From NCBI RefSeq assembly GCF_030247195.1, contig NC_080671.1:411318044-411382043 (forward strand): 64,000 bases of DNA. The letters run 5' to 3'. The DNA comes from Topomyia yanbarensis. Lineage: Eukaryota; Arthropoda; Insecta; Diptera; Culicidae. Below are positions 27,442 to 56,118 of the stretch, one piece after another (the stretch's first letter is position 1; every line of letters begins with the position of its first letter). The notes under the pieces are model-generated. The model did not search any database. It was given only the letters and a program-made list of their open reading frames with translations, and was not told where the DNA came from. The position numbers were made by a program, and so were the translations under genes.

Positions 27442-28061
27442 ATGCGTTGGTTCACTATATCCAGCATCTACGAAACGGTTCGACCCTTCACGTATCTGTT
27501 GAAAGTTTGTGGTTTAAACTGTGACAACTCCTGGTCGAAGATACCGGCCAGCCGAAGGATATGGAACTCGCTACTATACATAGTGCTGTTTATAGTGTTT
27601 TACTCTTACATTACCTTTGTAACTATCGTAATTCTAAGGCTAGACACTTACTACGAGTCGCTTATTGTAGGCCACACGGAGAATGTGTTTGCCGTGGTAC
27701 TGTGCCTGGTCGTTGTTTACTCCGTGGTGTTTGGCTATGTTTCCCGGAACGAAGTGTCTACCGTTCTGCGGATGTTGCACGAAGTAGACCGAGATCTGCT
27801 TTGTGTCCAGATCAGAATCGATCATCAAAGACAGCATCTTCTTTTGACGGTATTTATTTTAAGTGTGATTTTTGTTACTTTTGCGATGGCTATCCTTGGC
27901 TACCGGATCTATTATATGCTACTCGATGGATTCGAGGTGACTTTTTATAGCGTTGTAAGTTTTGTGGTATCATCTTGCTGTTATTTGGTGACGCTAAATC
28001 AGGCTACGTTGGCAGCACAGTTGTTGAGGGTGCGATTCGGAGCGATCAATGAAGCGTTTAG
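27442..28061 (+). CDS. Gustatory receptor N-terminal exon, copy 1
   Basis: This exon encodes 206 codons plus two bases of the N-terminal half of an insect gustatory receptor (7tm_7 family), a membrane ligand-gated cation channel of taste neurons. Four hydrophobic segments are visible at about residues 44-66, 82-100, 133-154 and 167-188, with an N-terminal stretch starting MRWFTISSIYETVRPF. The last residues before the donor (RFGAINEAFR) resemble the cytoplasmic loop before TM5. The reading frame stops just past AG|GTGAG, so the exon ends at 28061 in phase 2. The family's TM5-7 and C-terminal TYxxxxxQF are absent and must lie in other exons. The start was chosen because MRW/MWW aligns in all four copies. 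It is intact, with no stop or frameshift. Ligand unknown. Confidence 0.85.
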
Positions 28062-28994
28062 GTGAGGATTTTACTAACGGTGCAATGACAAAAGAATTCT
28101 TTTGATTTTTAAAGGCAGCGCGTGCTAAATCAATGTATGGTGAAGCAGAGGAGAATTGATTGTTTTAAGAAAGTTTCTAAAACGTTTTGTTTTTGTCGCA
28201 ATAATTACTTAATGCCTATATGGAAAAAAAAATCATCCTATAATCGTGACAGTAGAGAATTTACTGGACTGAAACATTTCCAATTTTCTTGAACTCTTCA
28301 TGTTAAAGTTTTTTAACCCTTCGCAGACCAGGTGAGAATAATTTGCGCCGAAGACCCATATCTGACTCCATATATTCTAATACACAAGAACTTTAATAAT
28401 ATTGAACCATCGTTTTAGTCAAGTACAGAGAAAAAGAGTTTTTTATCAATTTCAAAATTACTTTTTTTTTATATTACCTCAATATACTTATTTTATATCA
28501 CCTAAAACGACAAGTCGTTCGTCCTCCTCACGCATGCGCTGGCCTACAACCAATGGAACATGGAGACGCATCCGACCCCGCGTGGTTTGCGGAAGCTGAA
28601 TTCATACGTTTTTGACACGGTGGGGGTTAAAAGAGAGTTTCGATAGAGTGAAGGGAGGAGATTAGTGAGCTCAATTCGCGATCATGCTAATGTCTACCCA
28701 TGCCAGTGAGCTCGTGATTGATGAGTGGATGACGGAAATTGATGTCTGAAGCCATCTTAAAACCAAAATGACGACTTCCAATTTAGATAAAATTTCTATA
28801 CAGTGTCCGGAACTCGAAGTGTAACAAATAAAAAAAGCCATAAATTTTGCTAATCAGAATCAGAAATTCAGAATCAATTCGCTTTTTCTCGGTATGATAA
28901 CCTTTTACCTTGACTATAGTCTTCTTTTTTATTATTCAGTTCGTTTATTTGATAGGCACAAATGCGTTAGCTTGGCGGTGCCAAATTCTTTTGT
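28062..28994. other. Start of intron or spacer after receptor copy 1
   Basis: The sequence after the donor is noncoding. No TM5-7 receptor exon was found here. A candidate TTAA-flanked insertion is listed separately. The ORF at 28402-28599 has no recognisable features. Confidence 0.6.
28317..28626. mobile_element. Possible TTAA-flanked MITE
   Basis: TTAA lies at 28313-28316 followed by CCCTTCGCAGACC, and the other side ends in GACACGGTGGGGG followed by TTAA at 28627-28630. The ends share only a CCC start and weak complementarity, so the call is tentative. TTAA duplication is the hallmark of piggyBac-type insertion. Confidence 0.3.
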
Positions 28995-29385
28995 TTTTTT
29001 ACATTTTAAATACTTAAAACTAGGAGGTTACAATGTTCAAATATTTTTTTATATTGAGAGGAAGAATTCTACAGCTATCTTAAGACTACAAATACAGTTC
29101 TATATACAAGAGTGGGGGCAAAAGATTTCTTTTATGAAAAATTTTAAAGCAAGGAATCCAGTTTGATATTTAAAAGGGAAGAAAAAGTTTTTTTCGAAAT
29201 ATTTTACAGTTATCTTAAAACTAGGAAAATAGTTTGGTATATAAAAGGGGGAACAAATATTTATGAGAAATTTCACAGATATCTTAAAACTAGGGATACA
29301 ATTCTATTTACAAGATGGGGGACAATAGTTGTAATGAAGAATAAAATTAACAGCTATCTTAAAACTAGGAATACAGAATACTAAT
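28995..29385. repeat. Minisatellite of roughly 70-bp units
   Basis: About five to six degenerate copies share the core ACAG(C/T/A)TATCTTAAAACTAG, seen near 29070, 29207, 29276 and 29350, with degraded units near 29008 and 29148. Each is followed by a TATATACAAGAGTGGGGG-like and an AT-rich segment. The small ORFs at 28894-29166 and 29163-29384 read through it and encode the repeat (recurring YLKTR), so they are not genes. The tract abuts the 3' end of the minus-strand LINE and could be part of its 3' tail region. Confidence 0.7.
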
Positions 29386-29761
29386 TTATTATTTTTTTAA
29401 GGACACTTATGCTTGGTTAAGATATTCAAAGGAGGGCCTATTTCCATCATCGGTGTAGCAGCAGTTGTATCAAGGACAGGGGAGAGAAGGCGTATATGAT
29501 GACATGGAGAGAACAGCAGAAGTTGTAACTTTCGGGCAAACGGGAGATCAGCGACACAGTGCCTTGTTAGTAAATCGTCGAGTACCGGGTTGGCGGGTGG
29601 TATTCTTCAGACCCGCGGGGATGTTATCAGACCATCGCGTCGCTCTCGCTTCGGCTTCCTTCTATGCAGGGCGATGGCGGTCGCATTGTGGCACTCTGGC
29701 ACTGGTCGGATCGACAAGGAAGGACAGGGAGCTTCTGGAAACGAGAAATAAGAGAGAGGGG

Positions 29762-32700
29762 CTAAACTGGGATGTTTATCGTTTTTATAAAAATGTAAAT
29801 AAGGGATATATAGGGGAGATCTCGATTTGCCAGCATATCCCGAACTGGGACATAGGGTGGTCTACCTCGGGCCCGAAGGGAATTCTTTAACTGAGACCTG
29901 GCGTCACAATACCCGGCGCATACCCAGACAACGTGATCGATATCGTGATAACCTTCATTACAAGCGCACCGACTACTCTCTGTGAGCCCAATACGCCGCA
30001 AATGCGCATCCAATGTGTAGTGGTTGGACATAATCCGGGACACTACACGTATGAAATCTCGACCCACATCCATCTCCCTGAACCAAGGCTTCGTTGATAC
30101 CTTTGGGATAATCGAATGTAGCCATCGTCCAAGTTCTCCATTGCTCCACGAGGTTTGCCAACTGATGACAAATACTGAAAAATTCCTTGAAGCAAATTGG
30201 TCTTTCGTAGATGTCACCTTCTGTGACGGCGAAGCCCCTCGTTGCAGCGCTGCTACCAACACACAGCGGCGCGATCATTTCAGCCCTACCTGAATCTGTG
30301 CGGCGTTGATGAAACGGAAGGCAGAAAACTGTCACTTGGAAAAACACAGCAGCAGTAGATAGAAGGAGGACGATTATTTTCTCTTTAATTTACAGAATAC
30401 TTTATCTAACTATTTAAAAATTAATTTAAAACTAAATTTGCAGTGCAGTTTAACCTATTCTTAGGTGGCATAAAACTTAAATTAGTGGTTTGAGCTTAAT
30501 ACTACTTAAAACTATTGTGAGTATTCTAACTTAACCTAAAATTCTTACTTAGAGCTAAAACATGTGCACAATTTATCCAGACTTACAGACTAAATTCACG
30601 AATACTGAGTCAACCCTACCATTTGTTAAGCTGGTAACACCAAATAATTGTAATTAAACCAATCATGAAAACATGCAAATATTAAAATTTCACTGTTTGC
30701 AGTTGAAGCATTCCGTAACAAAAGATCCGGTTTGCTGTCTTAATTTGGAATTATCACACACCCCCACACCTTCTAATGCGCCCACCTTTGCTAAAGAGTC
30801 GGCCTTTTCATTACCCGAGATAGAGCAATGAGAGGGGACCCAAACAAAGGTAATCTGGTAAGATTTTTCAGATAACTTGCGCAGAGACTCCCGTATCTTC
30901 CCCAGAAAATACGGGAATTGCTTTTGAGGCTTAACCGTACGATGAGCCTTGATAGAGCTGAGACTGTCCGAAATGATGAAGTAGTGATCTGTGGGCAAAA
31001 TGTCGATGATCCCAAGGGCATAGTGAATAGCAGCTAATTCGGCGGCGTAAACTGAAGCAGGATCATCGGCCTTGAATGAAGCGGTGACATTACAATTGAA
31101 GATACCGAAGCCAGTGGACCCATCGAGATTTGATTCGTCGGTGTAAAACATTTTGTCGTAGTCGACTTCTCGGAATTTATTATAAAATATATTAAGGATC
31201 ACTTGTGGGCGTATATGATCTGGGATTCCACGGGTCTCTTCCTGCATGGATGTGTCGAAGAATACAGTTGAATCAGAAGTATCAAAGAAAGGTACACGGT
31301 CGGGATTATATGAAGAAGAATTGATGCTCTGTGCCATGTAGTCGAAGTACAAGGACATAAAACGGGTTTGAGAATTAAGCTCGACGAGCCTCTCTCAGTT
31401 TTCAATCACCAGCGGGTTCAAGATATCGCATCGAATGAGCAATCGATATGAGAATTCCCATAATCGATTTTTCAGCGGTAGAACGCCCGCCAGCACTTCG
31501 AGACTCATCGTATGGGACGAGTGCATGCCACCTAAGGCAATACGCAAGCAACGATATTGGATTCTTTCCAGTTTGATGAAGTGTATGTTCGCAGGTACCT
31601 TTAGAGTCGAACCAGACCCCGAGATATTTAAATGTGAAAACCTGATTGATCGTTGCACCCATTAATAGAAGATGGAGTTGCGCCGGCTCACGCTTCCTAG
31701 AACCAATTCAGTTTTCTCCGTGGAGAACTCGATACCCAGCTGAAGAGCCCAAGCAGACAAATTGTCCAAGGTATTTTGTAATGGTCCTTGCAAATCGGCA
31801 GCTTTGGGCCCTATAACAGAGACCACCCCGTCGTCTGCAAGTTGCCTTAGCGTGCATGAATTGGCAAGACAATCGTCAATGTCATTCACATAAAAAATGT
31901 AGAGTAGGGGACTTAGACATCAGCCCTGGGGAAGACCCATGTAGCTAAATCGCAATGTTGTTAAATCGCCATGCGAAAAGTGCATGTGCTTTTCAGACAA
32001 CAGGTTTTTATAAAATTTATTTAAAATAAGTGAAAGACTATGCTGGTGCAGCTTCTCTGACAGAACGTTGATAGAAACTGAATCAAAAGCCCGCTTATAT
32101 CCAAGAAGACTGATTCCATCTGCTCTTTGTTAGCATAGGCCATTTGGATTTCTGTAGAAAGCAACGCAAGGCAATCGTTCGTCCCTTTGCCTTTGCGGAA
32201 GCCAAATTGTGTATCTGACAGTAAGCCATTTGCTTCGACCCAGTTGTCGAGCCGAAACAGGATCATTTTCTCGAACAACTTCCGAATACAGGACAGCATT
32301 GTAATCGGTCGATACGAGTTGTGGTCGGAGGCTGGTTTTCCTGGTTTTTGAATGACGATGACCTTCACTTGCCTCCAGTCATGAGGGACAATGTTACCCT
32401 CAAGAAACTTGTTAAATAAGTTCAACAAGCGTCTTTTTGCCGTGTCAGGCAGATTCTTCAGCAAATTGAATTTGATTCTGTCTAACCCTGGGGCGTTATT
32501 GTTACATGACAAGAGAGCAAGTGAGAATTCCACCATCGAAAACGGTGTTTCGTTCACGGTATCGTGAGGAGACGCGGCGTGGTGCGTTTTCTGTACCGGG
32601 ACAGAGTCCGGACAGATCTTCTTGGCGAAAGCGAATATCCAGCGGTTTGAATATTCTACGTTCTCGTTGGTACTGTTTCGGTAACGCATACGTCATGCCG

Positions 32701-33821: not shown

Positions 33822-33953
33822 GGAGGGGCCATTTAGTAGTCAACTGCTTCAAAAATGTTTGCACCATAGGTAGAAAACGTATCAGAAGGCTTTTAAGAGG
33901 ATCAGTAACATTGAAAGCTGTGAAAATTAAGTCCACTATGTCAGAAAATTTCA

Positions 33954-35840: not shown

Positions 35841-35866
35841 AATTTTCTTCTGAAAAGTACCATTTT

Positions 35867-36735
35867 TGCCTTTCTCATATAAAGAAAGGCTATGCAATCA
35901 CTGTAAAAATCGACTTTTCAACCGAGGCCCGAAGGGCCGAGTGTCATACACCATTCGGTTCAGTTCGTCGGGATCGGCAAATGTCTGTGTGTGTGTATGT
36001 GTGTGTGTCATTTAAACTCACACAATTTTCTCAGAGATGGCTGAACCGATTTTCGCAAACTTAGTTTCATCTGAAAGGTATAACGCTCCCATAAGCTGCT
36101 ATTGAATTTTTAGTTGATCCGACTTCCGGTTCCGGAGTTACGGGTTGAAGAGTGCGGTCACACAGCAAATTCCCATATAAACTGGTACCACCATGATGTT
36201 CAAATGATGTAAAACATATTAAAATTGATGTAACATTACTCTAGTTTGTGGGTCTAGATCACTAATGATCAATCAAAGCAGCTTTGACCACATTGGCCAC
36301 CTATGACGGTTCATGACGCCCCCGGGGAACCCGCCAAGTTCCTAAGCTAATATCATACCCATTCCCCAACGAATTCTCTTCCGATTTTTACAAACTTGAT
36401 TTCAAATGAAAGATACAGTAATACCATTGACTGCTGCTGAATTTCATTCGGTTGTGACTGTTGCTTCCGGAGTTACAGGGGTGTAAGTAAGGATACACTG
36501 GAATTTCCCATATAAATCGGTACAATCGTAATACCTCAGAGGCTAAAAACTATTGAAATGGTCACCAAATTACTTCTAATCTCAGATCTAGATAACTGAT
36601 TGCCAATCAAACATTCTTTGAATATATTGTCCACTATCGACGATTCCGGAAGTCCGGAATTCCGGGCATATTCTACAATTTAAGTCACATCGGTTTCTCA
36701 AACCAAGTCTCAAATGGAAGGCAAAATATGCAGTT
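35867..36735 (+). repeat. GCCTTTCTCAT dispersed repeat, copy a (3' truncated)
   Basis: It begins TGCCTTTCTCATAT, followed by a near-palindromic GAAAGGCTATGCAA, a GGCCCGAAGGGCCGAG motif, and a TG-rich microsatellite at about 35980-36008. It then has an internal module recurring about every 320-335 bp (centred near 36040, 36374 and 36690): an ACCGATTTT..AAACTTAGTTTC segment, then TGAAAGGTATAACG, then CCGACTTCCGGTTCCGGAGT. It breaks off near 36735. From memory this kind of sequence is abundant in culicine mosquito genomes; I cannot name the family. The ORF at 35819-36064 lies inside and is not a gene. Confidence 0.7.
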
Positions 36736-37009
36736 GAATATTCCGTCGCCGCCCCTCCCCCCGCCTTGCCCGTACACCTCCTTCCTTCATCACTCCCCTC
36801 CCCTTGGACCACCCGCATTTCCTTCATCCACCCCGTATACCGAAATAAGATGAAGGATTTCTCCGATTACTCCCAAAGAAGGATTACTCCCACTCTACTA
36901 ACCCCCCATTACCTTCACTTTCTAACCCATTCCACCAACATTTCAAAATATAATCACATGAAGATAACATTAAACTCATGCAGATTAAGCTAATTAAATA
37001 TTATTCTTT
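36736..37009. other. C-rich pyrimidine-biased spacer between two repeat copies
   Basis: The + strand is strongly biased to C and T (runs such as CCGCCCCTCCCCCC and CACTCCCCTCCCC) up to about 36930. This composition is unlike anything around it. The overlapping small ORFs on both strands are composition artefacts. It may be an expanded pyrimidine tract within the repeat family. Confidence 0.5.
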
Positions 37010-37142
37010 TGCCTTTCTCATATAGAAAGGTTATGCAATTGCTCCAAAGACCGACTTTCTAATCGAGGCCCGGAGGGCCGAGTCTCATATAACATTCGAC
37101 TCAGTTCGCCGAGATCGCAAAATATCTGTGTGTATGTATGTG

Positions 37143-37174
<32 letters not shown>

Positions 37175-38025
37175 TGTATGTATGTATGTATGTGTGTGTA
37201 TGTGCGGATTTGTTAACAAAATGTCCACATCGGTTACTCGGAGATGGCTGAACCGATTTTTATAAACTAAGATTCAAATAAAAGGTATAATATTCCAATA
37301 GGTTGCTATTGAATTTCATTTTCAACCGACATCATGTTCCGGATTACGAGTTGAAGTGTATGGTTACAAAACAAAATTTGTTGATTTGTCCACATCGGTT
37401 TCTCGAAATTTTCTGAACCGATTTTGACAAACTTAATTTTAAATGAAAGGTCCATCAGCTGCTGTTGAATTTTGTGTGGATCCGAGTTCTGGTTCCTGAA
37501 TTACAGGGTGATACGTACGATCACGCAGCAAATCCCGATTCTAACGAATTCTGCGATGAATGTAAAAAGGTGAATTTTTTTTCCAAAATGTAAACACAAC
37601 TGTTGAATTTGTAGATCTAGGTCATCAACAGTCATGCAAAGTCTCTTTAGCCACACTGGCCACCATCGACGGATCCGGAAGCATCCAAATTCAGAATAAC
37701 GGTTATATTGGTTTCTCGAAAATGGCTCGACCGATTTGATCAACTTAGTCTCAAATGAAAGGTGTTGCGTCCCCGGAAACTGATATTAAATTCCATCTCC
37801 ATCCGACTTCCGGCTCCGGAGTTACGAGTTATGGAGTGCGATCACATAGAAAACTCCGATTCAAACCGATACCGCGATGAATGCAAAAAGGTGCTCTTAT
37901 ATATACTTACCCAGTGTAATAAGAATGAAAGACATTTCCATAATGTTATATTGTACGAACCCGCTATTAAATCATAGTTTGTAGAAATGAGAAAGGCACA
38001 ATTGCACCTCTAGGTGGATTAAAAC
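37010..38025 (+). repeat. GCCTTTCTCAT dispersed repeat, copy b (most complete)
   Basis: Both ends are present. TGCCTTTCTCAT lies at 37010-37021 and its inverted copy ATGAGAAAGGCA at 37987-37998, followed by a conserved tail CAATTGCACCTCTAGGTGGA and TTAAAA. The (TATG)n microsatellite is at 37129-37204. Three internal modules carry the ACCGATTT/AAACTTA and CCGGAGTTACG motifs. The tail also appears at the start of the minus-oriented copy c, which shows it belongs to the element. There is no coding capacity; it is probably a non-autonomous element. Confidence 0.72.
37129..37204. repeat. (TATG)n microsatellite
   Basis: About 15 consecutive TATG units flanked by TG-rich sequence, at the position where all copies of this repeat family carry a TATG/TG (or CATA/CA) microsatellite. 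Confidence 0.9.
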
Positions 38026-38315: not shown

Positions 38316-38879
38316 TACGTTTCAACAATTTCTACACTGCTAAAACAAAGTACCCATTAATGCGTAGAAATTTGAATAAAAGTGAAATAACTCACTTAAT
38401 GGGTGAAGAGGTTGTACGTCAACCTGGATACGTTTTACCCATTATTTCTTGTAGAACACTTACAACGAATTGCGTAAAGATACCGAAATTCGTTTTTTTC
38501 GGAGCCGATAATGTGCAGGTTTCGAAACGATTTTTAATGTGTAGGTTATCTCGCTTGAAGTAATTCAAAATGATCCCATTATTAGTCACTTATTATTGGT
38601 CTCAATATACCCATTGGCATAGTCTCATCGAAATCTATGAAAAGTATTAGAAACAAAAAAGTACCCAATTTTGACACCTGGAATAACTTCTGCAAATGAG
38701 CAATTTATAATCATAAAATTGGTAAAGTTTGTTTGACGTGTAAGGAAAATAATTACGAAGGAGATTGTCAATCTCATATCCGTTTGATAATACTACAAAA
38801 TACTATATAATGAGAGCTGAACAGCTTGTCTTCCAACGTATGTTCACGTGAAATTTTTTATTGTTAATTTCCTCAGCTT

Positions 38880-40360
38880 GGGTTAAAACCAAGGTTAGAA
38901 ATAGCATTTTGGGAAACTATTAGGACAAATAGCAGAGAGCTGAAACAGAGGATACGATTAATAAAAGACAACCAAATGCTTTTCAATCGCTCTCTCGGTG
39001 AAAGTATTTTTCCCGCCAAGTGGAAGGAGGCTTTAATAACACTAATTCATAAAGCCGGTAACGTCCATGACGTCATAAATTACAGGGGAATTTCAATCCT
39101 GAGCTGCCTCCCAAAAGTTTTTGAAAGTATGCTGTTAGATATTCTTTACCCTACAGTAAAACACATCATCACTACAGATCAGCATGGGTTTGTTAGAAAG
39201 CGCTCAACAACGACGAACTTAATGAGCTATGTGTCAACGCTGAATGATAAATTAGAGAAACGACAACAAATTGATGCAGTGTATGTAGATTTCTCCAAAG
39301 CCTTCGATCGCCTTCCTCACCAGCTAGCTGTTGAAAAGTTGACGCGAATCGGATTTCCGGACTGGCTGACCAATTGGATCTTCTCGTACCTTACAAACCG
39401 CAGTGCATCTGTGCGACTTGGAACTGTACTTTCAGACCCATTCGACATCACATCGGGTGTACCTCAAGGGAGTCACCTTGGACCTCTTCTCTTCGTGCTC
39501 TTTGTGAATGACATTTGCAGCGAATTGACAACGTGTACGCAGATGATCTGAAAATTTATCGCATCATAACAACTCTGGTAGATTGTTGTGCACTTCAGAT
39601 GGACATAGATAGGATCAAGAGTTGGTGTGATAGAAACGGAATGACTATAAACATTCAGAAATGCAACATAATCACATTCACACGAATACTCTCGCCAATT
39701 AAGTTTGAGTATGCAGTGAGCGCTGCCCCAGTAAAACGAGTTTCATCAATCAAGGACCTTGGTGTTATACTTGACCGTAAGCTACGTTTCATCGAACACT
39801 TCAATGCAGTAACTGCTAAAGCCTATGCAGTACTAGGACTCATCAAACGAAACACCCAAGATTTCAACGACGTCTACTGCCTGAAGGCACTGTACATCAG
39901 TCTGGTACGCAGCATTCTAGAGTATGGAGTTATCGTTTGGGCCCCGTATCACACCGTACACATTAATCGCATAGAACGGGTGCAAAAGAGCTTCGTCCGG
40001 TATGCCCTTCGACGGCTTCCCTGGCGAAATCGATTGGAACTACCACCGTATAAGTATCGTTGTGCTCTTATCAACCTGCCTACGCTACGAAACAGGAGAG
40101 TTTTTCTGCAGCGACTTTTTGTGTTCGATCTTCTCGCTGACAACATTGACTGCCCTCTGCTTCTCGCTAAGCTGGACTTCAACGTTCCCGGTAGGTCTCT
40201 GCGGAGAATGGACTTCTTTCGGCGCTCTACTCATCGCACGCAGTACGACCAGAATAACCCGGTAGATGTTTGCTGTCAGCTCTTCAATAGCGTTTTTCAT
40301 CATTTTGACTTCAACTTAAGTAGAGAAATGTTCAAATTGAAAATAGGTTTAAGTTAGTAT
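38880..40360 (+). pseudogene. CR1/jockey-type LINE reverse transcriptase, 5'-truncated and frameshifted
   Basis: The first frame (38976-39551) carries RT fingers and palm: a YRGISIL motif, HGFVRKRST, the catalytic VDFSKAFDRLPH and SGVPQGSHLGPLLF. The second frame (39515-40357) begins with the catalytic VYADDLK (YADD at 39536-39547), then the thumb and the C-terminal region ending FDFNLSREMFKLKIG. The two overlap around 39515-39551, so one frameshift separates the two halves of the palm. The endonuclease and ORF1 are missing, consistent with 5' truncation during insertion. The sequence before 38976 already reads as RT N-terminus in another frame. The other ORFs at 39949-40303 are shadows. Confidence 0.85.
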
Positions 40361-42349: not shown

Positions 42350-43780
42350 TAGGGCATTGCAAAAAATTTTTTTTTTGGATTCTCAAAGGCCCCCCCTCTC
42401 ATATTGTGACAAATGTCAAAGTAAGCTCAGATGCCAAATTTCACATCATTTGGACAATTTTAGACCCCCGCCCACTTCGCTTGAATTTTTTTGAAATTGG
42501 TACTATGGGAAAATATGGAGGAAAAATACATTAAATGCTATAACTTTTGAAGTAGCAATCAGAAAATTGAAATTTATACCTCTTTTGGAAAGAAATAATC
42601 TAAGTATTTGAATGGAGAATGGGGTACTGGGCCATTTTGGCCCCAAAATCCCCTATTTTTAATGATTTTTCTGCTCCGTGATGCAAATCATACATATTTT
42701 GTAGTTTTTCTAATGTAAAAAAATCTCAGAAATCGAACGGAACCCTTTTGACCTTTGTCCGAATACAAGAAGTTGGGGTTTAATGGCCTTTTGACATTCA
42801 TATTAAACTTCATCATTTTCTCGTGAATATATCTCCATTATTCTTCACTCAATTTTCATAAACTATACCTTGTTGAACGTGGAAAATCCTTAGGATTATA
42901 ACAAAAATAGATTCGTTACCGGTAAAATTCAGGAACATTAAATTATCTGACATATAGTGTCGATTTCACATTTTTATCATAAAATCGCACATATTAACTC
43001 TATTTAACAACAAAATTCTTATTTAATTTACTACTTTTAGTGTAAAATATGCTTAGGGATCACATGAGAAAAGTTTCATTCCTGGAAAAATAGGGGAAGT
43101 TGAGGTATTAGGACAAATAATGAAAAAAATGAGATTTTTAGAGTAAATATCAAAAAGTTTGATGTTTCTGAATTTTACCTTTAACGTTTTTATTTTTGTT
43201 TTATTCCTCAGAATTTTACACGTTCAGTAAGTTACATTTTATGAAAATTGATTGAAGAATAATAGAGATATATGCATGAGAAAATGATAAAATTTAATAT
43301 GACTGACAAAAAGCCCTATAACCCCAATTTCTCGTATTCGAACTAAGGTCAAAAGGGTTCCGTTCGATTTCTGAGATTTTTTCACATTAGAAAAACTACA
43401 AAATATGTATGATTTGCCTCACGGAGCAGAAAAATCATTAAAAATAGGGGATTTTGGGTCCAAAATGACCCAGTGCCCCACTTTCCCGTATTTTTCAAGA
43501 AACAAGTATATCTCCATTCAAATACTTAGATTATTTCCTTTCAAAAGAGGTATAAATTGTAATTTTCTGATTGCTACTTCAAAAGTTAAAGCATTTAATG
43601 TATTTTTCCTCCACATTTTCCCATAGTACCAATTTCAAAAAATTTCAAGCGATGTGGGCGGGGGTCTAAAATTGTCCAAATGATGTGAAATTTGGCATCT
43701 GAGCTTACTTTGACATTTGTCACAATATGAGAGGGGGGGCCTTTGAGAATTCAAAAAAAAATTTTTTTTGCAATGCCCTA
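42350..43780. mobile_element. hAT-like non-autonomous element with ~600-bp inverted repeats
   Basis: The termini are TAGGGCATTGC and GCAATGCCCTA. The left arm (42350 to about 42960) is an imperfect reverse complement of the right arm (about 43160-43780), with a loop of about 200 bp. An 8-bp direct repeat TTTCACAC flanks the element (42342-42349 and 43781-43788). An 8-bp duplication with a TAGGG-type end fits the hAT superfamily. The ORF at 43405-43626 lies in the arm and is not a gene. Known function: none, but a transcript through both arms would fold into a long hairpin. It sits about 235 bp upstream of the predicted start site of receptor copy 2. Confidence 0.82.
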
Positions 43781-43788
43781 TTTCACAC

Positions 43789-44090
43789 AGATGCTAGAAA
43801 AATCACCTTGGAAGGATGTCATAGGAGAGGACATAATGACATGGCGATTTTAATTACCTCTGTAACGAAAGCAATTCTTCCGTTCACATCACGAACACGA
43901 CCATCCCAGTAAACTAGGTGTTGTCAGCATTCCATCGTTGAATTATTAATGCACTCAATTCTAATGATTGCCGGTGCTCGCATATTGTTGCTTTGTTCGG
44001 TGCAACTATCAGAAGTTAGTGAGATTCTCGAGCCCGCAGTAAAAGCACCGAATTCTTTTTGCCACAAAAGTCCTCATATTCGACAGTGAG
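43789..44090 (+). promoter_or_regulatory. Predicted promoter and 5' UTR of receptor exon 2
   Basis: The initiator-like TTAGT is at 44016-44020, 75 bp before the ATG. The block TTGTTCGGTGCAACTATCAG (about 43993-44012) and CTCGAGCCCGCAG (44027-44039) are nearly identical to the same positions before copy 3. Sequence further up (about 43840-43960) also matches 45065-45200, so the promoter was duplicated with the exon. Confidence 0.55.
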
Positions 44091-44707
44091 ATGCGTTGGT
44101 ACGAAATATCCAACATCTACGAGACGGTTCAACCTTTCACGCATCTGTTGAAACTTTTCGGTTTCGACTATGGCAATTCTTGGTCGCAGACACCAGCCAG
44201 CTGCCGGGTATCGGTCGCGCTACTCCATATCGTGCTATTCGTTGTGTTTTACTCGTACATTACCTTTATGACAGTCGTCGCTCTGAGGCTGGACACATAC
44301 CACGAGTCACTTATAATTGGTCAAACCGAGAATTTGAACGCCGTGTATCTGTTCCTGATCATCGTTTACTCTGTAGTGTTTGGAGTTGTGTCTAGAAACG
44401 AAGTGTCCATCGTTCTGAGAAAGTTACACGAAGTAGATCGTGATTTGCGTAGAGTCCGCGTTCAAATCGATCACCAAAGGCAGCACTTTCAGTTGACGGC
44501 GGTTATGTTTAGTGTTGTTTCAGTGACTGTAGGGCTACCAGTAGTGACTTTGGTTTGTTACATGATAGTAGAAGGTTTTGAGGAAACATTTTATAAGTTT
44601 TTAACTTTCGTTGTACTGGTTACTTGTTATTTTGTGATACTGAGCCAAGCATCGGTAATGGCGCAATTGTTGAAGGTGCGATTCGAAGCAATTAACAAAA
44701 CGTTCAG
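44091..44707 (+). CDS. Gustatory receptor N-terminal exon, copy 2
   Basis: This exon has 205 codons plus two bases. It is collinear with copy 1 (MRWYEISNIYETVQPFTHLLK..., four hydrophobic segments at about residues 44-66, 82-100, 133-154 and 166-190, ending RFEAINKTFR). The donor AG|GTAACT at 44707/44708 is in phase 2, identical in position and phase to the other copies. It is intact. It is closest to copy 3, both in protein and in the preceding few hundred bases, so the two derive from a local tandem duplication. It encodes the N-terminal half of an insect gustatory receptor. The C-terminal half is not adjacent: no acceptor with a TM5-7 sequence is seen before copy 3. Confidence 0.85.
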
Positions 44708-45640
44708 GTAACTGAAACTGTTGGTGATTGCGATGCTGAAACATAAAAAGTCAGTTATTCAGTTTAGCAAATTGTATGTTTCCAAATAAAATAAGGACAT
44801 TGAACTCATAAGCAGTGATTTCTTGGTTGATTACGAGTATGTATAGGACACATGCACTACGAACTAGTTCTCAAACACTTGGAATTATACGCATATATTG
44901 CGTGGCAAAGAAAGATAATGACACGATGGATAGTAGACTAATCACGGTGTATTTTCATAATACAAATATACTTCGATAATCATGAACCAATTTTCTCATT
45001 TGGAAGAGACGATCATTATTCCCCTATCCCTATTTACCAAAATCTTATCTTGTCAAACCAAATTAACATTTGAAATGTCGATTCCAATCACATCTATAAC
45101 TGAAGTAATTTTACGCTCATATAACAAGCATGACCATTCCAATAAATTGTGTGTTGTCACCATGTTTCAGCTGTGCATTATTAATGCGCTCGTTATTGTT
45201 AAGGTGTCGTATACCTTCAACCTTGCCAATATAAATTTTGCGATCTTTAATTTTTTTTACCGATCACACAAACCAGCTAAGGCGTATCGACTAGTGTATG
45301 TTTTCATCAGTTTGTAAAGAAACTATCAAAAATAGTGAATTATACAAAGCTAACGTAGTTTTTAAATGTTTGCTGTTAGCACGATATTTCCACATCCAAT
45401 AGGCCGATTTTTTCAGCAGTTCTTTCACTTCTTCTTATGTGTTATGTTCAACGAACGGTGTTCCAAACAAAGATAAGTTACTGAATTATTGATAATTTTT
45501 ACAGAAAACTAAATCTCCGTAAATTTTTACGTTTTTTATGATCACATAAAATGTATATTCTGTTCAAAATATTACGATAAAACGCTGAATTTCACCGAGT
45601 TCAAAGGTACATAACCCCTTAATAGCTGCTGCTCCAACAT
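44708..45640. other. Intron or spacer between receptor copies 2 and 3
   Basis: Noncoding. The part at about 45065-45200 is a duplicate of the sequence preceding copy 2, followed by about 430 bp with no counterpart there, which looks like later inserted or diverged sequence. The ORF at 44982-45317 runs across this duplicate and is not a gene. Confidence 0.6.
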
Positions 45641-45745
45641 TGTTTCTTTGTTCCGTGCAACTATCAGCAATCAGTGACATACTCGAGCTCGCAGAAAAAA
45701 CATCGAATTCCGCGTGTAACAAACGGCAGCTAGTTTGACAGTAAT
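45641..45745 (+). promoter_or_regulatory. Predicted promoter and 5' UTR of receptor exon 3
   Basis: The initiator-like TCAGT is at 45671-45675, 75 bp before the ATG, within TTGTTCCGTGCAACTATCAG followed by CAATCAGTGACATACTCGAG. AAACATCGAATTCCGCG in the leader matches AAACATCGATTTTCGC in copy 1. The conserved spacing over three copies is the main support. Confidence 0.55.
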
Positions 45746-46359
45746 ATGCGTTGGTTCGCGATAGCCAACGTCTACGAAACGGTTAAACCTTTCGGGAATC
45801 TGTTGAAAGTTTGCGGTTTGAACTATGGCGACACTTGGTCTCAGTCTCCAGCCAGCTCCAGGATATTGAAATTGTTCATGTACATAGTGCTATTTGTTGT
45901 GATTTACTCGTACATCACCTTCGTAAATGTCGTTGTTCTGAGGTTGGACACTTTTCACGATTCGCTCATAATCGGCCACTCGGAGAATTTGTATGCTGTG
46001 ATTCTGTTCCTGATCATTGTTTACTCTATGGTGTTTGGAGCTGTGTCTCGGAATAAAGTGTCCTTTACGCTGAGAAAGCTGCACGAAATAGATAGTGATT
46101 TACTTGAACTCAACGTTAACATCGATCACCAAAAGCAGCACTTTCAATTGACAGTAGCTTTGATCAGTGGTCTTTCAGTGACTGTAGGCTTACCAGCGGT
46201 GACTTTGTTTTGTTACATGTTGGAAGGTTTCGAGATGACATTTTATAAGTTCTTAAGTTTTGTGGTATTAGTTGGCTGCTATTTTTTGCTAGTGAGTCAA
46301 GCAACTTTGGCTGCGCAGTTGCTGAAGGTGCGATTCGGGGCAATCAACAAAATATTCAG
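45746..46359 (+). CDS. Gustatory receptor N-terminal exon, copy 3
   Basis: This exon has 204 codons plus two bases. It starts MRWFAIANVYETVKPFGNLLK, has four hydrophobic segments in register with copies 1 and 2, and ends RFGAINKIFR before AG|GTAAAG at 46359/46360 (phase 2). It is intact and closest to copy 2. It is one residue shorter in the loop before TM4 (MLEGFE against MIVEGFE in copy 2). It encodes the N-terminal half of an insect gustatory receptor, and the rest must come from downstream exons. The next 9 kb contain only mobile DNA and no receptor-like exon. Confidence 0.85.
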
Positions 46360-46619
46360 GTAAAGTTAAGAAAATGTTTTCGTCGATTATAATTGCAAGG
46401 GAGGTACGTTAATATGTGGCAGTTAGCACTGTCACCCTTTGTATATTAGTTAATATGGGGCATTACAGGCAAAATAAAGATAATTATTTATTTCGGTTTG
46501 GCTGTCCAAATATTCTAGACGCATTTTTTATTTCAATATAGAGGAATTCCACGAGGATTCTTCCAAAAATCTTCAAAATCGTGACCGACCATCTTAGATT
46601 CCGATGGAACGTTACACGT

Positions 46620-48260: not shown

Positions 48261-49490
48261 TTTTAATCCACCTAGCGGTGCAATTGTGCCTTTCTCAATC
48301 ATGAATCACGAGAATGTGTGCGTTGTTTTCATTCATTAAAAACTTTTAAATGCATATATTACATTTTATTATTATACATCACATGACAACTATACACAGG
48401 AAAATAAATCATTATTCGAATTCTAAAATTTTGAAAAAGAAAAAACAGCCACGGTAATATTGAACTGAAAAAAGGTGCGAAATCCCAAAAAGTCGATTTT
48501 CATAAAAAAAACAATTTTCGAGGTAACATAAAATCTCGACGTTTCATGCACTTTAAAGATGTTTGGCATCAAAAATACGAATTCGATTTCTGAAATTTCA
48601 TGAGGTCCCCCCTTTGAAAAAAAAAATTAGAGTTCCGGCTTATATGGGAATTTCATATGTGACCGGACGATTTAGTCTATACTTCCGGACCCATAGAAGC
48701 GATCCGTACGAAATTTTATAGACATCTGTGGGGATATTATAGCTATCATTTAGGACTAAGTTTGTGAAAATCGGCCCAACCATTTCCGGGAAACTGATGT
48801 GAGTTCGTAAATTTTGAAAGATGGCCGCTTTTCCCGGGCACTTCCGGAACCGTCTATGGTGGTCAATGTAGTCAACGAAAGTTTGGTTGGCCGTCGGTGA
48901 CCTTGCTTTCATCGGAGTATCGGTTTGAATCACAATTTGCTATGTGATCGCACGCCACAACCTGTAACTCCGGAACCGGAAGTCGGATCAGGATGAAATT
49001 AAATAGCCATTTACGGAGACGCAATACCTTTCATTTGAGATCAAGTTTAGTCGAATCGGTCTAGCCATCTCCGAGAAACCTGTTATTCTGAATTTAGATA
49101 CTTCCGCCGGGGCTTCCGGAACCGATGATGGTGACCAATGTGGCCAAATAGACTTTGAATGGATGTTAGTGACCTAATACTACAACTCGAAGCAGTTGTG
49201 GTCATATTTTGGAAAAATTTTCACCTTTATACATTCATTGCAGAATTTATTAAAATCGAAATTTTCTGCGTGTTCGTACTCATCACCCTGTAATTCCGGA
49301 ACCGGAAGTCGGATCCATTAGAAATTTAATAGCAGCCTATGGGAACGTCGCACCTTTCATTTGAGACTAAGTTTGTCAAAATCGGTTCAGCCATCTCTGA
49401 GAAAAATGAGTGACATTTTTGGTCACATACACACGCACATACACACACATACATACATACATACACACATTCATACACATACGCTCGTTA
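48261..49490 (-). repeat. GCCTTTCTCAT dispersed repeat, copy c, inside a LINE
   Basis: It starts on the + strand with TTTTAATCCACCTAGCGGTG and CAATTGTGCCTTTCTC, which is the reverse complement of the 3' tail of copy b. It runs through several modules (GGAACCGGAAGTCGGATC near 48975 and 49300; AAGTTT..CAAAATCGG..AGCCATCTC). It reaches the CA/CATA microsatellite at about 49420-49480 and stops, so the 5' end with the second GCCTTTCTCAT is missing. It interrupts the LINE whose two parts lie on either side. Confidence 0.7.
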
Positions 49491-49494
49491 TGCA

Positions 49495-49870: not shown

Positions 49871-50221
49871 ACCGAAGACATTTTAATCTGTATTGTTATT
49901 TGCTGCTTTTTTATATCTTTTGCTTTTGTTTTTATTGTATTAGCCTGATTTGCCACATTTTTGACGTAGGATTACGTCTTTGTTTTCGATATGGGGGTGC
50001 ACTCTGCAAATTCTACAAAAATGGTATGAAACGAAAAGTGGTCCAATTTTAAACGCATATAATTCAGCCATCTCACGATAAATTTTCAAATTTTTTGCAC
50101 AAATCGCCCCGAAATACTTCTAAGAATAGATTCCAATAGATAAACCCAAAGATTTTTGATATCATAGCATTAAAAAATTAAATAATATACAACCTTGTCA
50201 AAATATCGCGCATTAACACAC
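49871..50221. other. AT-rich noncoding spacer
   Basis: Probably the LINE 3' UTR (to about 49960) followed by AT-rich sequence. The ORF at 49858-50052 is a hydrophobic, low-complexity reading and not supported as a gene. Confidence 0.5.
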
Positions 50222-51050: not shown

Positions 51051-51620
51051 AATGCCACTGTAATGTTGCCAGTAAATTTTTGGTTTAACTAGCACATGTA
51101 TTTGCTATTTCCGCTTGAAATTAAGTAATATAGTGGTAGTAATAAGCTTCCCATTTTGGTTTAAACGCAAGGACAGTTTTTAAAACAGGATTTGATTAAT
51201 TAGTTTAGCTCATCTAAGCAATTTTATCAATTCTGTAATTTAAAAGGAATTTTACGGAACTTGGTGGATTTGGCCCCACTTGCAACTGGTATAATCAACC
51301 TGCACAAAGTGTTGCATAACGCAGGGCTATTTTTTGGAACAAAATCATTCAGCCCTTCGCTATGCAAAGTCACGATATTATGACAGATGGGCTAAGCGCG
51401 GCCGGGAAAGGCCGCGTGGAATTTTGGTGAAATGCGCTAATAGTGTCGTGGTGGTACTAGTTGTCTCTTTCGCTCTACCCATCATCACCATCAGCGTTGA
51501 CTCATTTTGCATTGTACGCTTGGGTTCAATGTTTGGGGCGAAGGTGTTGGTAGGTAGGGGAACTGGCGGTAAAATGAACACGTTAAGCAATGTCATTATT
51601 TTCTAACTAATAAGTGAATG
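51051..51620. other. Noncoding spacer
   Basis: No feature recognised. The opposed ORFs at 51334-51606 and 51378-51596 overlap and lack domain character. The phrase GGCGGTAAAATGAACA near 51565 recurs in similar form near 51780, hinting at a repeated unit. Confidence 0.4.
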
Positions 51621-51629
51621 AGATATTAC

Positions 51630-52260
51630 AATCACATTATGTTTCTTGTTAGACATGTTTTGTACATATCTGGTAAAAATACTTCGTCATAAACACATTT
51701 TTTCAAACATGATTCTTGATTTTTAAACATGTCCAAAAATGAGACATGTTTATAGAGCGAGTGGGTAAAATGTACATATGGCGGTGGTAAAATGAACAGC
51801 TTCTGGTGACCTGCAAAATGTCCTGTATGTATGCAATGCGCAGCGTTGGAAAGCATTTTCCGATCAATGCTAATATCCCAACAAATCATGAGCTATGCAT
51901 ACACACAGGGCATTTTGCAGGCAAAAAAATTGTCACGGAAGAATTGAATTTTCATGACGTAATATTAAGGTTGGACAGAGAAAGGGTAAAATTCGCAAAC
52001 GAAAAAAGCAGTAGTGTAACAACATTCTACATACGCTGATTTATTTTTATGAAGATCTGACATACGGTGTGGAAAAAAACTACTTTTTTCGTTTGTGAAT
52101 TTTGCGCATTCTCTGTCCAACTTTAACCATTTTACAATCCTGTGGCATCGAAACACATCTACAAACTTGGGGTTATCCATGGGTGTTTGAACTTTTAGGA
52201 TCTGTTTGAGAGCAACTAGAAAGCTTGTTCTATACATGAGATGTGATTATATTGTCTAAA
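51630..52260. repeat. Region with two nested imperfect inverted repeats
   Basis: The outer pair is GGTTGGACAGAGAAAGGGTA-type sequence at 51969-52017 against its reverse complement at 52080-52135 (CTACTTTTTTCGTTTGTGAA and CATTCTCTGTCCAAC). A second pair is ACCTGCAAAATGTCCTGTAT at 51810-51838 against its reverse complement ending GGGCATTTTGCAGGC at about 51893-51923. These palindromes generate the overlapping ORFs here. The element type is unknown. Confidence 0.5.
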
Positions 52261-52408
52261 ATTTGATTTTTCTTCCCGCCCGGGTGTTTTTTTTAACACA
52301 CTAAGTACTAAGAAAATAAATATTTTACATTAAGTAGTATAGTCCTACGTCTACAGTTCGTGCAACCCCATAGGGCTACCCCTTGTAGTTTTTTCTTTGT
52401 ATTCTTAA

Positions 52409-52524
52409 CCTTCCGGCAGTCGCGCTAGTGCACTGAGTGCACGCTGCTCTGAAAATCTAGCGAAATCGTCTTAGGGCACCAGCGGCTGCTCGTTCAGTGG
52501 GCCATAAGCGCGACTTCCGGAGGG
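52409..52524. mobile_element. 116-bp TTAA-flanked MITE (piggyBac-like)
   Basis: TTAA at 52405-52408 is followed by CCTTCCGGCAGTCGCGC. The right end GCGCGACTTCCGGAGGG is followed by TTAA at 52525-52528. The 17-bp termini are imperfect inverted repeats (two to three mismatches). TTAA duplication plus CC-initial ends is the piggyBac-type signature. The GC-rich interior is partly self-complementary (GTGCACTGAGTGCAC). There is no coding capacity, so it would need a transposase in trans. Confidence 0.78.
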
Positions 52525-52750
52525 TTAAGTTATTATTTATTGTTAAGTTCTGTATTATGTATTCGACTGCAAAGATATGGGCTTTTTATACCATTTTGAG
52601 AAGAGTTAATGTTTCACTCAAAGTGGCTTTTCCCTATCTCCCCATATTCATTAAGATCAACTAGGTCAGATTATTAATAAATAAATAAATAATTGTAAAT
52701 AATTGTAAAAAGAAACGTTTTCAGTGTATTTGGATCATGAAGAAGCTACC

Positions 52751-53590
52751 AATAAAAAGTTTTCCTTTTGACTTTTGACATATTTTTATAAATGTTTTCA
52801 GTCAAAAATACAATTTTATTTTTGAATTTGATTTTAAACGCCATTTTAAATCAAAATGCTCATACCAAAAAAAATTTGAAATATAATAGTTCCCGAGATA
52901 TTTTAAATTTTGTTTTAACAACACAAAATGGTTTACAAAATCGCCTTGATGTCAAAGAGAAAGTTACAGAAAATGTTATGGGCTTTTTGAAAAACCTATT
53001 GTTGTTGCTGGAGAAACACGAAAAACTTATGAAAAGGTCGTAATAAAACAAAGTAATTAAGTTGTTCAAACAAAGATTAAAATATATCGAGAACTATTAC
53101 ATTTCAAAATATTTTTGTTGTGAGCATTTTGTTTTAAAATAGCGTTTAGAATCATATTCAAAAATAAAATTGTAAAAGCAATAATTAATTATAAAAATAT
53201 GTCGAAAGTTGTTAGGAAAACTTTTTATTGAAAGCGCGAATAGCTTTTTAAAAAGGACATAATTACACGAATTAATTGTTTTTGTTGGAGTAAAATTTCA
53301 ATTATTTCGAAAACTATCGTATTCTGGAAGATATTTTTAACATAAATTCAAATTTTAAGCGTAAATTTTAGTTTTTGTAAAAAATGTCACAGTATTTTTT
53401 TCAGTGTATATTTTTTGTGAAGATTTGTCCATTCCCTGTAACTCGTTCTAAGATAGTTTTATTGTATAAAATAGGGTAGTCGAACAAAAAATTAAAATTA
53501 TGCGCGTGGAAACGTCTACGCCATTTTAAAAAATTGCGCTTAAGTCAAGATAATCTTACAGATTGTGGAAAATGTTAAGTATTCTGGATT
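52751..53590. mobile_element. Repeat Y element with long inverted repeats
   Basis: The left arm (about 52751-52920: AATAAAAAGTTTTCC, GACATATTTTTATAA, ACAATTTTATTTTTGAAT, AAATCAAAATGCTCA) is the reverse complement, with mismatches, of about 53060-53232. The segment beyond the right arm (53240-53590) is homologous to 46620-47174. The ORFs at 52792-53043 and 52860-53069 are low-complexity readings of the arms and loop. No target duplication was found. It is non-autonomous and of unknown superfamily. Confidence 0.6.
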
Positions 53591-55430
53591 TTTCTCGCTT
53601 TATCTTAAGCAATCATTTTTTCAAAGTATGAGTCACTGAATCGATCCAAAGAGTCGATTCATTTTAGTGAGTGAATCGAATACGGTTCACTCATCGAACT
53701 GAATCGGTTTGCCCATCTCCAATTACTTTGACCGTCGTTGTGCTACCAGCCAGAATCGGCAGTACCAGAGTATTTATCGTACCATAGTCCGTACCAAACA
53801 GACAGTCAACCGGATAAAAAGCTCGCCGAAAGCAGTTAGCAACGAAGGCTCTCCTAAAAAGTGCCCTCGCTACCGACCAGGAAACCACCCAGTATCAGAA
53901 GCAAAAGAAGCTACTAATCCGCAATCAATACTAGCACGGAGCTTTACTAACTAATTATGACAGTCAATCCACGGAGCCGACTGCGTCCTAATAATCACCT
54001 TCTTTCTCGATGTTGTGATCTAGTCTCCGGTTATCCAATAAGGTTGACTAATAGAAACCGACCAAAATCATAAAACTTCCAGTTCAAGATTTGCGGCTCA
54101 TTGCATGAAATTGCCGGTAACCAATCTCGAACTGGCTCGAAATCCTGTTTTTCGTTGTATTTACTACTTTCTAACCATCATAAAATACAAACTTATTCAT
54201 CCACCAGCAGATATAGCTCCCAAATATTTCCTTCTTGGTATTGTACAGCCATTTGAGGAGATGCTCCGTTAGCTCTACACATCTCAACACGAATGATAAT
54301 GAAATAAATCTGTTGCGGAGCTATATTTAACAATTTTCATCATTTAACTGTTCGGTTGGTGCACCATATTGACGGTCTTGACTGAGATGATAATTTTCAC
54401 AATTTTCGAGTAGATTTTGATAACAGATAGATATGTGATAACAGAGAACTATTTTCCCAATAGATAGCTTAACCTATTCTACAATGGCTGAGCGTGTCGT
54501 TATGCAGTATCTCCCAGGGCCCGTTTTTCCTCTCTATTGCCCTGTTTACGCGTATTTTATAGTTACAAAATATACAAATTTTCTTTCTGTACTTTTGTAA
54601 ATTTAATCTAGCAATATTTTGCACATCGCAAAACATCTGAGAGGAGATGACCGTAACCTTCGTTTTAACGAATGAAACTTGCCAGTATAAAGTTGAAATT
54701 ATTTACAAAATTAGTTCAAATTGTATTTTTTTTTTCAATTTCGCTAAATTATTTAAAAAAGCAAATGTATATAAGAGTATTACCATAACTGTTTTTTATC
54801 GTTTGAGTACCGTATATTTTTCTTCCATCTCCACCTCACATGTTTTAATTTTAAGTAAACATGCGGGTCTCCGAAATACACAAAATACACCTGGACCCCG
54901 TAGTAGTCCTCTCCCGTATCCCTCTCCATAGCCCATTCTGACTTACCCTTCCGTCGAGCTTGAAGGCCTGAATAAGACAAACTGTTAACGAATGTACCAC
55001 TGAAACTGAAAAAACTGTTCAAAACCGTCTGTAGTGTTCGTATAGGCGCAAAAATGTCGGTTCGAAATTAATTCCAAGTTGACATGCGGGAACAAAAAAT
55101 TGTTTCATTAAGCAAAACTCTTGCTGGCCATTTACGGTACGTAAATGTTTTACGTTAAACTCACAAACCAAGAAATTTGAACACGAAAATATTTTGACAC
55201 GCTGCTATCAGATGTCGATCATTTCACCAATGTGTATTTAACCTAATGCTTGTGGGACCTGATAACCTCTAGAATGCGAATTGTGCACTGTGGAAAAAAA
55301 TGTTGTAGATTTTGTTTCCCTTTTCAAAACAAACACCGAACACGGTAGAAACGAAGTTCGGTTGAAATATTCGGCTATATTTCCACACATTTTCTTCGTG
55401 TTCGGATACCACTCCGTAATAGATGCGATG
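53591..55430. other. Noncoding spacer upstream of receptor copy 4
   Basis: A short GAATCG/CGATTC-rich cluster lies at 53635-53705. The segment 53705-53960 is less AT-rich and open on both strands for about 65-80 codons, with no domain recognised. The rest (53960-55430) shows no feature I can support. Confidence 0.5.
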
Positions 55431-55501
55431 CGTTTTATCAGATTACCTGCCGAAAGCAATTCATTAGTGCCGATAGAAGCGTCAAAGGACACACTGCAAC
55501 A
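55431..55501 (+). promoter_or_regulatory. Possible 5' leader of receptor exon 4
   Basis: ATCAGATT at 55437-55444, about 64 bp before the ATG, is a weak initiator-like sequence. The upstream block shared by copies 1-3 is not recognisable here, as expected from the greater divergence of this copy. The context before the start is GCAACAATG. Confidence 0.25.
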
Positions 55502-56118
55502 ATGTGGTGGTTCACCGTAACGGACATATACCAGTCCATCCGTCCTCTCTACTATCCGTTGAAACTGTTCGGTTTGGCTGTGAGCCCGTTCAATCGAAGT
55601 CCTGCTCGGGAGTCCCGCTTGCTTGCGTGGCTGTATCTGTTCGCGTTTGGAGCTCTGTACACCTACATCGCCTACGTTTGGATGTATCTGAACCCGTTTC
55701 CAAGTCGATACAAATCAGTGATCCTGGACGGTATCGAAGACCTGTACACGCTGATGTTCTATCTGCTGGCGGTGCATGGGATGCTGATGTTCTATTTGGT
55801 GCGAGATAAAATCGGAACAATCCTCAAGGCTCAATATGAAGTCGATCTAGTCCTGGCGCGACTCGGCACGAAAGTACATCATGCCAAACATCATCGTCAG
55901 TTGATGGTGGCAATCGCGATAGTGGTTGCCATAGCCGCCGGTATTACTGCCGGATACTATCGTGTCTTTATATCATTTTTGAATGTTGATCGTTTCACCT
56001 TGCAACGGCAAGTAGCCTATGTTATCTTTATGCACAATTTTGAGCTGACCGTGGGTTCCGGAACGTTTTTGATGCACCTCTTGCGACAAAGATTCGCTGC
56101 CCTCAACGATACGCTCAG
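55502..56118 (+). CDS. Gustatory receptor N-terminal exon, copy 4 (divergent)
   Basis: This exon has 205 codons plus two bases. It begins MWWFTVTDIYQSIRPLYYPLK and keeps the same plan as the other three (aromatic N-terminus, four hydrophobic segments at about residues 41-63, 80-99, 133-154 and 168-190, end RFAALNDTLR). It differs at most positions and has a less AT-biased coding sequence. The donor AG|GTAAGT at 56118/56119 matches the splice consensus perfectly and is in the same phase 2. It is intact. The family resemblance of the end (RF..LNDTLR) to other mosquito gustatory receptors is what I rely on most. No TM5-7 exon follows before the window ends. Confidence 0.82.

What the first reader, a model, noticed from the sequence alone, without database searches (positions are those of the whole stretch)
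27442..56118. Four receptor first exons with identical splice phase and no C-terminal exons: an alternative-first-exon array
Seen: four intact + strand exons of 204-206 codons, each holding TM1-4 of a gustatory receptor, each ending at a GT donor after an AG in phase 2. Nothing resembling TM5-7 or TYxxxxxQF appears in 28 kb between them or in the 8 kb after them. Known: some mosquito and fly gustatory receptor loci splice many long N-terminal exons to shared short C-terminal exons. Inferred: this is such a locus, with the shared exons beyond 64000, which would give introns of more than 8 to more than 36 kb swollen by transposons.
Basis: partly seen in the sequence, partly recalled or inferred. 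Interest (0 to 1): 0.75.

Follow-up and report, generated by a model that had tools for sequence, protein, structure and literature searches.

The report
Mosquito taste-receptor alternative first exons
This stretch of a Topomyia mosquito chromosome holds four interchangeable front halves of a taste receptor that are most likely spliced one at a time to a shared back half further downstream, an arrangement already known from the same gene in other mosquitoes.

Summary
Four intact + strand exons (A 27442-28061, B 44091-44707, C 45746-46359, D 55502-56118) encode the N-terminal half of a gustatory receptor and end in the same phase (AG|GT). No C-terminal half was found in the window. The window is Topomyia yanbarensis. 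NCBI models already join exons D and C of one gene, LOC131685071 (isoforms X2, X3), to one C-terminus running from MYFPT to TYLIILIQF. That C-terminus is 92-98% identical in eight other culicine genera, including Aedes AAEL007935, which I match to AaegGr20 (13 transcripts in print). New detail: A, B, C are a clade of Topomyia exons only, under constraint (dN/dS 0.28-0.34), and alike for about 110 bp before the ATG but not after the donor, which suggests one promoter per exon. A decayed fifth first exon of another class lies at 26577-26777. Not shown: that A and B are spliced to the shared exons, and where those exons lie; the genome search tool did not complete.

The parts
26577..26777 (+). 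Decayed relic of a fifth first exon (middle part only, stop in frame; no intact start or end seen), nearest to Toxorhynchites P0023 and Aedes AAEL007935-PC/-PF first halves
   Evidence: tblastn P0023 E 1.1e-10, P0015 E 4.9e-10; alignments; profile E 1.5e-8
27364..27441 (+). Conserved block before exon A, TCAGT (initiator-like) at 27370; probable own promoter and 5' UTR
   Evidence: blastn with the block before C starts at 27364; 0 of 2000 random pairs score as high for A-B and A-C
27442..28061 (+). First exon A, 206 codons + AG, donor GTGAGG
   Evidence: first 137 aa equal P0001
30690..35148 (-). Broken non-LTR retrotransposon (endonuclease, reverse transcriptase, RNase H pieces) between A and B
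   Evidence: Pfam hits in 3 of the 5 separate ORFs scanned here
38868..40357 (+). Second reverse transcriptase, split over two frames
   Evidence: RVT_1 E 1.4e-23 and 0.0026, the latter below cut-off
42361..43768 (.). Foldback element (inverted arms 96% and 86% complementary) before exon B
43967..44090 (+). Conserved block before exon B (shared with C; TTAGT at 44016)
   Evidence: blastn 43967-44711 to 45622-46363 at 76.5%
44091..44707 (+). First exon B, 205 codons + AG, donor GTAACT
45622..45745 (+). Conserved block before exon C, TCAGT at 45671
45746..46359 (+). First exon C, 204 codons + AG, donor GTAAAG; first half of LOC131685071 isoform X3 (P0042)
   Evidence: 100% identity over 204 aa
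55502..56118 (+). First exon D, 205 codons + AG, donor GTAAGT; first half of LOC131685071 isoform X2 (P0002)
   Evidence: 100% identity over 205 aa

Best explanation
The window is the 5' side of one gustatory-receptor gene of Topomyia yanbarensis (LOC131685071), the counterpart of Aedes AAEL007935 (AaegGr20) and probably of the Anopheles AgGr9 locus. Each long first exon has its own ATG and most likely its own short promoter, and codes for the N-terminal helix and membrane helices 1-4. A transcript that starts at one of them uses that exon's donor; later first exons, having no acceptor of their own, are removed with the intron; the donor joins one common phase-2 acceptor beyond 64000, followed by shared exons for helices 5-7. 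The result is a set of receptors with different first halves on one constant half that holds the pore end. Shown: the exons, their phase and donors, constraint on A-C, absence of C-terminal exons here, gene models joining C and D to one C-terminus. Inferred: own promoters, use of A and B, place of the shared exons, and the roles of the two halves.
For: P0002 = exon D + C-term and P0042 = exon C + the same C-term, same LOC, same 470 Mb contig. 76 proteins match the C-term at E<=1e-3; Wyeomyia LOC129727139 X1, X2, X3, X5 and Aedes AAEL007935-PB, -PC, -PD, -PF, -PG, -PH, -PI carry different first halves, each a tip of its own in the tree. Of 77 proteins in hand 57 have MYFPT; the residue before it is R in 50, G in 6, C in 1, which fits a phase-2 junction with a fixed acceptor (many of these are isoforms or near copies, so not independent). 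Tree of 34 first halves: A, B, C one clade (100/97); D with Malaya P0003 (99/94) and Aedes X3 P0017 (98/95). dN/dS 0.284, 0.344, 0.343 for A-B, A-C, B-C at dS 0.88, 0.81, 0.57. The 110 bp before the ATG: 0 of 2000 random pairs score as high for A-B, A-C, B-C; the stretch 221-330 bp before: 1134, 1134, 1038 of 2000; start of the intron: 605, 1631, 69 of 2000. Model of P0002: junction 206/207 at the end of helix 166-208, before a low-confidence linker.
Against: The shared exons were not located: the genome search gave no answer. The gene models are computed and their read support was not seen. A is annotated as a separate, partial locus. No model for B among the 77 proteins. By blastn the A-B likeness starts only at the ATG. 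D's upstream block is not clearly like the others (A-D 142, B-D 40, C-D 793 of 2000), and one intron pair, B-D, is high (9 of 2000). The structure model is modest (pLDDT 75, pTM 0.50) and its TM-scores to Gr and Or structures are only 0.31-0.39.
Confidence: 0.92

Rival explanations
1. Only C and D (and first exons outside the window) are used; A and B are dead or dying copies cut off by transposon insertions.
For: A has only a partial model that runs into a retrotransposon; no model for B found; a decayed fifth copy shows that such exons do die here.
Against: A and B have intact frames and donors, conserved upstream blocks and dN/dS of 0.28-0.34 against each other and C. Pairwise dN/dS cannot exclude a recent loss.
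Confidence: 0.2
2. Four separate genes or pseudogenes, each without C-terminal exons.
For: No C-terminal exon found after any copy in the window.
Against: Annotated isoforms put C and D on one C-terminus; models of Aedes, Wyeomyia and Anopheles have the same layout.
Confidence: 0.03
3. The C and D isoforms arise by trans-splicing, or an assembly error displaced C-terminal exons.
For: Very long inferred introns; a large satellite array and an assembly gap (14187-14686) in the same window.
Against: The isoform models belong to one gene on one contig; related mosquitoes have the same layout in their models.
Confidence: 0.03

Closest known systems
Aedes aegypti AaegGr20 (AAEL007935), 13 transcripts
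   Same: C-terminus 92% identical; different first halves on isoforms; same junction before MYFPT. 13 transcripts stated in PMC10419030 (passages seen).
   Different: AAEL007935 = AaegGr20 is my inference from length 410 and LVHKAINCASSSAVI with Cys 337 in AAEL007935-PG. Topomyia has its own triplication A-C.
Anopheles gambiae AgGr9a-n, and AGAP001117 isoforms
   Same: C-terminus 89% identical in P0035, 50% in the AGAP001117-PA to -PH models, which lack a stretch of about 60 residues; different first halves. AgGr9a-n is named in PMC2204066 (section part read).
   Different: That AgGr9 is AGAP001117 was not tested; the Anopheles first halves in the tree sit outside the A-C and D clades.
Aedes aegypti AaegGr60 (4 transcripts, PMC10419030)
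   Same: Junction MYFPV in place of MYFPT and C-terminus 78% identical (P0045, P0046).
   Different: A more distant C-terminus, so another locus; its first halves were left out of the tree.
Drosophila Gr39a
   Same: Array of large first exons, each with own start and donor, spliced to small shared exons; duplicated, lost and degraded exons (PMC2204066: outline, Introduction and part 1 of 2 of Results read).
   Different: There each large exon codes for six membrane domains, here for four. That paper calls the orthology of Gr39a to AgGr9-12 weakly supported.

Membership tests
Insect gustatory receptor (7tm_7, PF08395) | Match to the 7tm_7 profile | tested here: met
   Exon D alone passes the cut-off, B is below it, A and C have no hit; full-length P0002 and P0042 are listed with PF08395.
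Insect gustatory receptor (7tm_7, PF08395) | TYxxxxxQF near the C-terminus | tested here: met
   P0002 position 380, P0042 position 356; not in the window itself.
Insect gustatory receptor (7tm_7, PF08395) | Gr/Or channel fold | tested here: inconclusive
   The nine top PDB matches are Gr43a, Gr9, OR5-Orco and Orco (8 with E<=0.001), but TM-scores are 0.31-0.39 on a model of pTM 0.50. By sequence residues 230-389 match Gr43a, E 9.3e-8.
AaegGr20-type alternative-first-exon locus | Several first exons with one donor phase | tested here: met
   4 of 4 phase 2, AG|GT.
AaegGr20-type alternative-first-exon locus | Two or more first exons joined to one C-terminus | tested here: met
   NCBI models for C and D; not seen for A and B.
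AaegGr20-type alternative-first-exon locus | Shared C-terminal exons downstream on the same strand | not testable with these tools
   Not found in the window; genome search gave no answer.
AaegGr20-type alternative-first-exon locus | C-terminus closest to that of AAEL007935 among Aedes loci | tested here: met
   92% identity; other named Aedes aegypti loci in the list 57-79%.
AaegGr20-type alternative-first-exon locus | Own promoter per first exon | tested here: inconclusive
   Conserved blocks before A, B, C; TCAGT in A and C, TTAGT in B; D not clearly alike. No transcript starts seen.

The most novel reading that the evidence does not exclude
The unit that multiplies in this locus is a promoter-plus-exon cassette: about 100 bp of core promoter, the exon and its donor are copied and kept together, so that each new copy arrives able to be transcribed and spliced across tens of kilobases of transposon-filled intron to a channel half that hardly changes. 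The Topomyia triplication (A-C) and a decayed copy of another class show this birth and death under way.
Probability: 0.55. Interest if true: 0.35.

Novelty: new member of a known kind. Interest (0 to 1): 0.22.

Why it matters
It shows that this architecture can be read correctly from raw sequence, and it points to gaps in public annotation: exon A is filed as a separate partial gene and I found no model with exon B. The locus is a clear case of taste receptors diversifying by swapping the first half while the second half stays at 92-98% identity in the eight other culicine genera seen. The architecture itself is known.

Tried and rejected
A homolog search with exon A alone found only P0001; full-length receptors lie outside that query's length limits. 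I then used exon D with its open upstream frame and a region, and the C-terminal region of P0002. Plasmid records: no match. The first tblastn over the whole window timed out and was repeated without the satellite. Looking for further divergent first exons by profile, the next hit after the relic has E 0.074, taken as chance. That profile was built from 59 first halves that include those of P0002 and P0042, so the strong scores of D and C against it are by construction; I therefore cite for the identity of the exons. The E-values are for an 850-base subject with composition correction off and are not used.

Papers: AAEL007935, none. Topomyia yanbarensis, four papers listed, each with one mention, no title on this locus (listing). 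Sabethini with gustatory receptor or alternative splicing, 8 of 190 listed, no title on this locus (listing). Searches were seen as listings; PMC4704297 passages named no Gr20 or Gr39. A 2008 paper by Kent and others on Aedes Gr genes is recalled and was not seen.

Rejected: a pseudogene cluster, because of intact frames and dN/dS of about 0.3; P0001's second exon as a receptor exon, because it lies on the strand opposite to a reverse-transcriptase ORF of a broken retrotransposon.
Full report
What is there. The window holds four + strand open frames at 27442-28061, 44091-44707, 45746-46359 and 55502-56118. Each starts with ATG, holds 204-206 whole codons and ends AG before GT; length mod 3 is 2 in 4 of 4. 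Pfam 7tm_7 covers its first half (profile positions 1-191 and 5-189 of 370) in D (E 1.1e-8) and B (E 5.4e-4, below cut-off); A and C give no 7tm_7 hit. The best matches in other mosquitoes have E 2.4e-38 (A), 2.7e-36 (B), 1.2e-34 (C) and 1.2e-83 (D). Among themselves A-B share 126/205, A-C 121/204 and B-C 139/204 residues; D shares 48-57 of 203-205 with the others.

Where it comes from. Exon A is identical over 137 residues to P0001, a partial protein of Topomyia yanbarensis (LOC131680891) on a 470 Mb contig. Topomyia is a genus of the tribe Sabethini.

The other half. Exon D is the first 205 residues of P0002 (LOC131685071 isoform X2, 409 aa), exon C the first 204 of P0042 (isoform X3, 385 aa). 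Both go on with R and then one C-terminus, from MYFPT to TYLIILIQF and on; X3 lacks 23 residues of it. It was not found in the window: best tblastn E 1.3 over 24529-64000, best profile E 0.63.

Relatives. 76 proteins match the C-terminal half at E<=1e-3. Identity is 98% in Malaya, 96% in Sabethes and Wyeomyia, 94% in Uranotaenia and Armigeres, 93% in Toxorhynchites, 92% in Aedes AAEL007935 and Culex, and about 88-90% in most full-length Anopheles models of this group (85% in one); other loci and shortened models score lower. Wyeomyia LOC129727139 (X1, X2, X3, X5) and Aedes AAEL007935 (-PB, -PC, -PD, -PF, -PG, -PH, -PI) carry different first halves on one C-terminus. Of the 77 proteins in hand 57 contain MYFPT; the residue before it is R in 50, G in 6 and C in 1, which fits a phase-2 donor ending in G before a fixed acceptor; many of these are isoforms or near copies of each other. 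AAEL007935-PG has 410 residues and Cys 337 in LVHKAINCASSSAVI, as does the entry AaegGr20 in PMC10419030 (passages). That paper gives AaegGr20 13 transcripts, AaegGr39 8 and AaegGr60 4 (passage). A single-nucleus atlas of Aedes speaks of a Gr20-positive antennal cluster, which its filter removed, and of Gr20/Gr60 in the abdominal tip (PMC12767863, passages).

Evolution. The tree has 34 rows: the four exons, 28 first halves that I picked from the 77 proteins, and two pieces of P0023; three Gr60-type rows were dropped because they lack MYFPT. A, B and C form one clade (100/97). They lie near Wyeomyia X2 (90/80) and in a group with Aedes PG and PH (90/90, under the program's mark for firm support). 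D joins Malaya P0003 (99/94) and Aedes X3 P0017 (98/95). So D's class, and probably that of A-C, is older than the split from Aedes. A third class (Aedes PC/PF, Toxorhynchites) is represented here by a relic with a stop at 26577-26777. Pairwise dN/dS of A-C is 0.28-0.34 at dS 0.57-0.88 (own script, Nei-Gojobori counts).

How each copy could be switched on. By blastn the likeness of A and C starts 78 bp before A's ATG (27364), that of B and C 124 bp before B's ATG (43967), and that of A and B at the ATG; it stops within a few bases of the donor. In a global comparison the 110 bp before the ATG score above all 2000 random pairs for A-B, A-C and B-C. The stretch 221-330 bp before gives 1134, 1134 and 1038 of 2000, the first 110 bp of intron 605, 1631 and 69 of 2000. 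D is different: its upstream block gives 142 (with A), 40 (B) and 793 (C) of 2000, and one intron pair, B-D, scored high (9 of 2000), which I leave unexplained among 18 comparisons. A and C have TCAGT 72 and 75 bp before the ATG, B has TTAGT at the aligned place. This fits one promoter per exon for A-C; it is not proof.

What the halves do. A predicted model of P0002, made with an alignment of 44 of the 77 proteins (pLDDT 75, pTM 0.50), puts the junction at the end of helix 166-208, the fourth long helix if 73-99 and 101-120 are counted as one, followed by a low-confidence linker and helices from 230 on. The nine top fold matches in the PDB are Gr or Or channels, with low TM-scores (0.31-0.39); by sequence the C-terminal half matches Gr43a (E 9.3e-8). 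From recall of such channels the last helix forms the pore and the helices before it the ligand pocket, so the choice of first exon would change much of the pocket and keep the pore.

Introns. If the shared exons lie downstream, the introns exceed 7.8, 17.6, 19.2 and 35.9 kb. The stretches between the exons hold a broken non-LTR element, a second reverse transcriptase, a foldback element and interspersed repeats. NCBI's model of exon A joins residue 137 to 32552-32596, on the strand opposite to a reverse-transcriptase ORF; I read this as an annotation error or a stray splice.

Verdict. Added here: the species, the gene, the relic, the cassette-like duplication, and the likely annotation faults at A and B.

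Noticed in passing
1-24528: A 24.5 kb array of the 7-base unit TGTTTTA (97% matches), with a 500-base assembly gap at 14187-14686; it ends about 2.0 kb before the relic exon and 2.9 kb before exon A. G lies almost wholly on the + strand.
   Followed up: partly
32552-32596: The partial model P0001 (LOC131680891) takes exon A residues 1-137 and then a short peptide from this place, opposite to a reverse-transcriptase ORF of a non-LTR element.
   Followed up: partly
42361-43768: Foldback element with inverted arms 96% and 86% complementary, ending about 200 bp before the conserved block of exon B.
   Followed up: no
35981-37893, 48903-49456, 60832-61010: Interspersed repeat family in both orientations.
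   Followed up: no
62108-62491: Tandem array with a 33-base unit holding TTTACGCGG.
   Followed up: no
P0042 (LOC131685071 isoform X3, not window DNA): Lacks 23 residues of the shared C-terminus that hold several nearly invariant positions; exon skipping or a model error. Anopheles AGAP001117 models lack another stretch of about 60 residues.
   Followed up: partly
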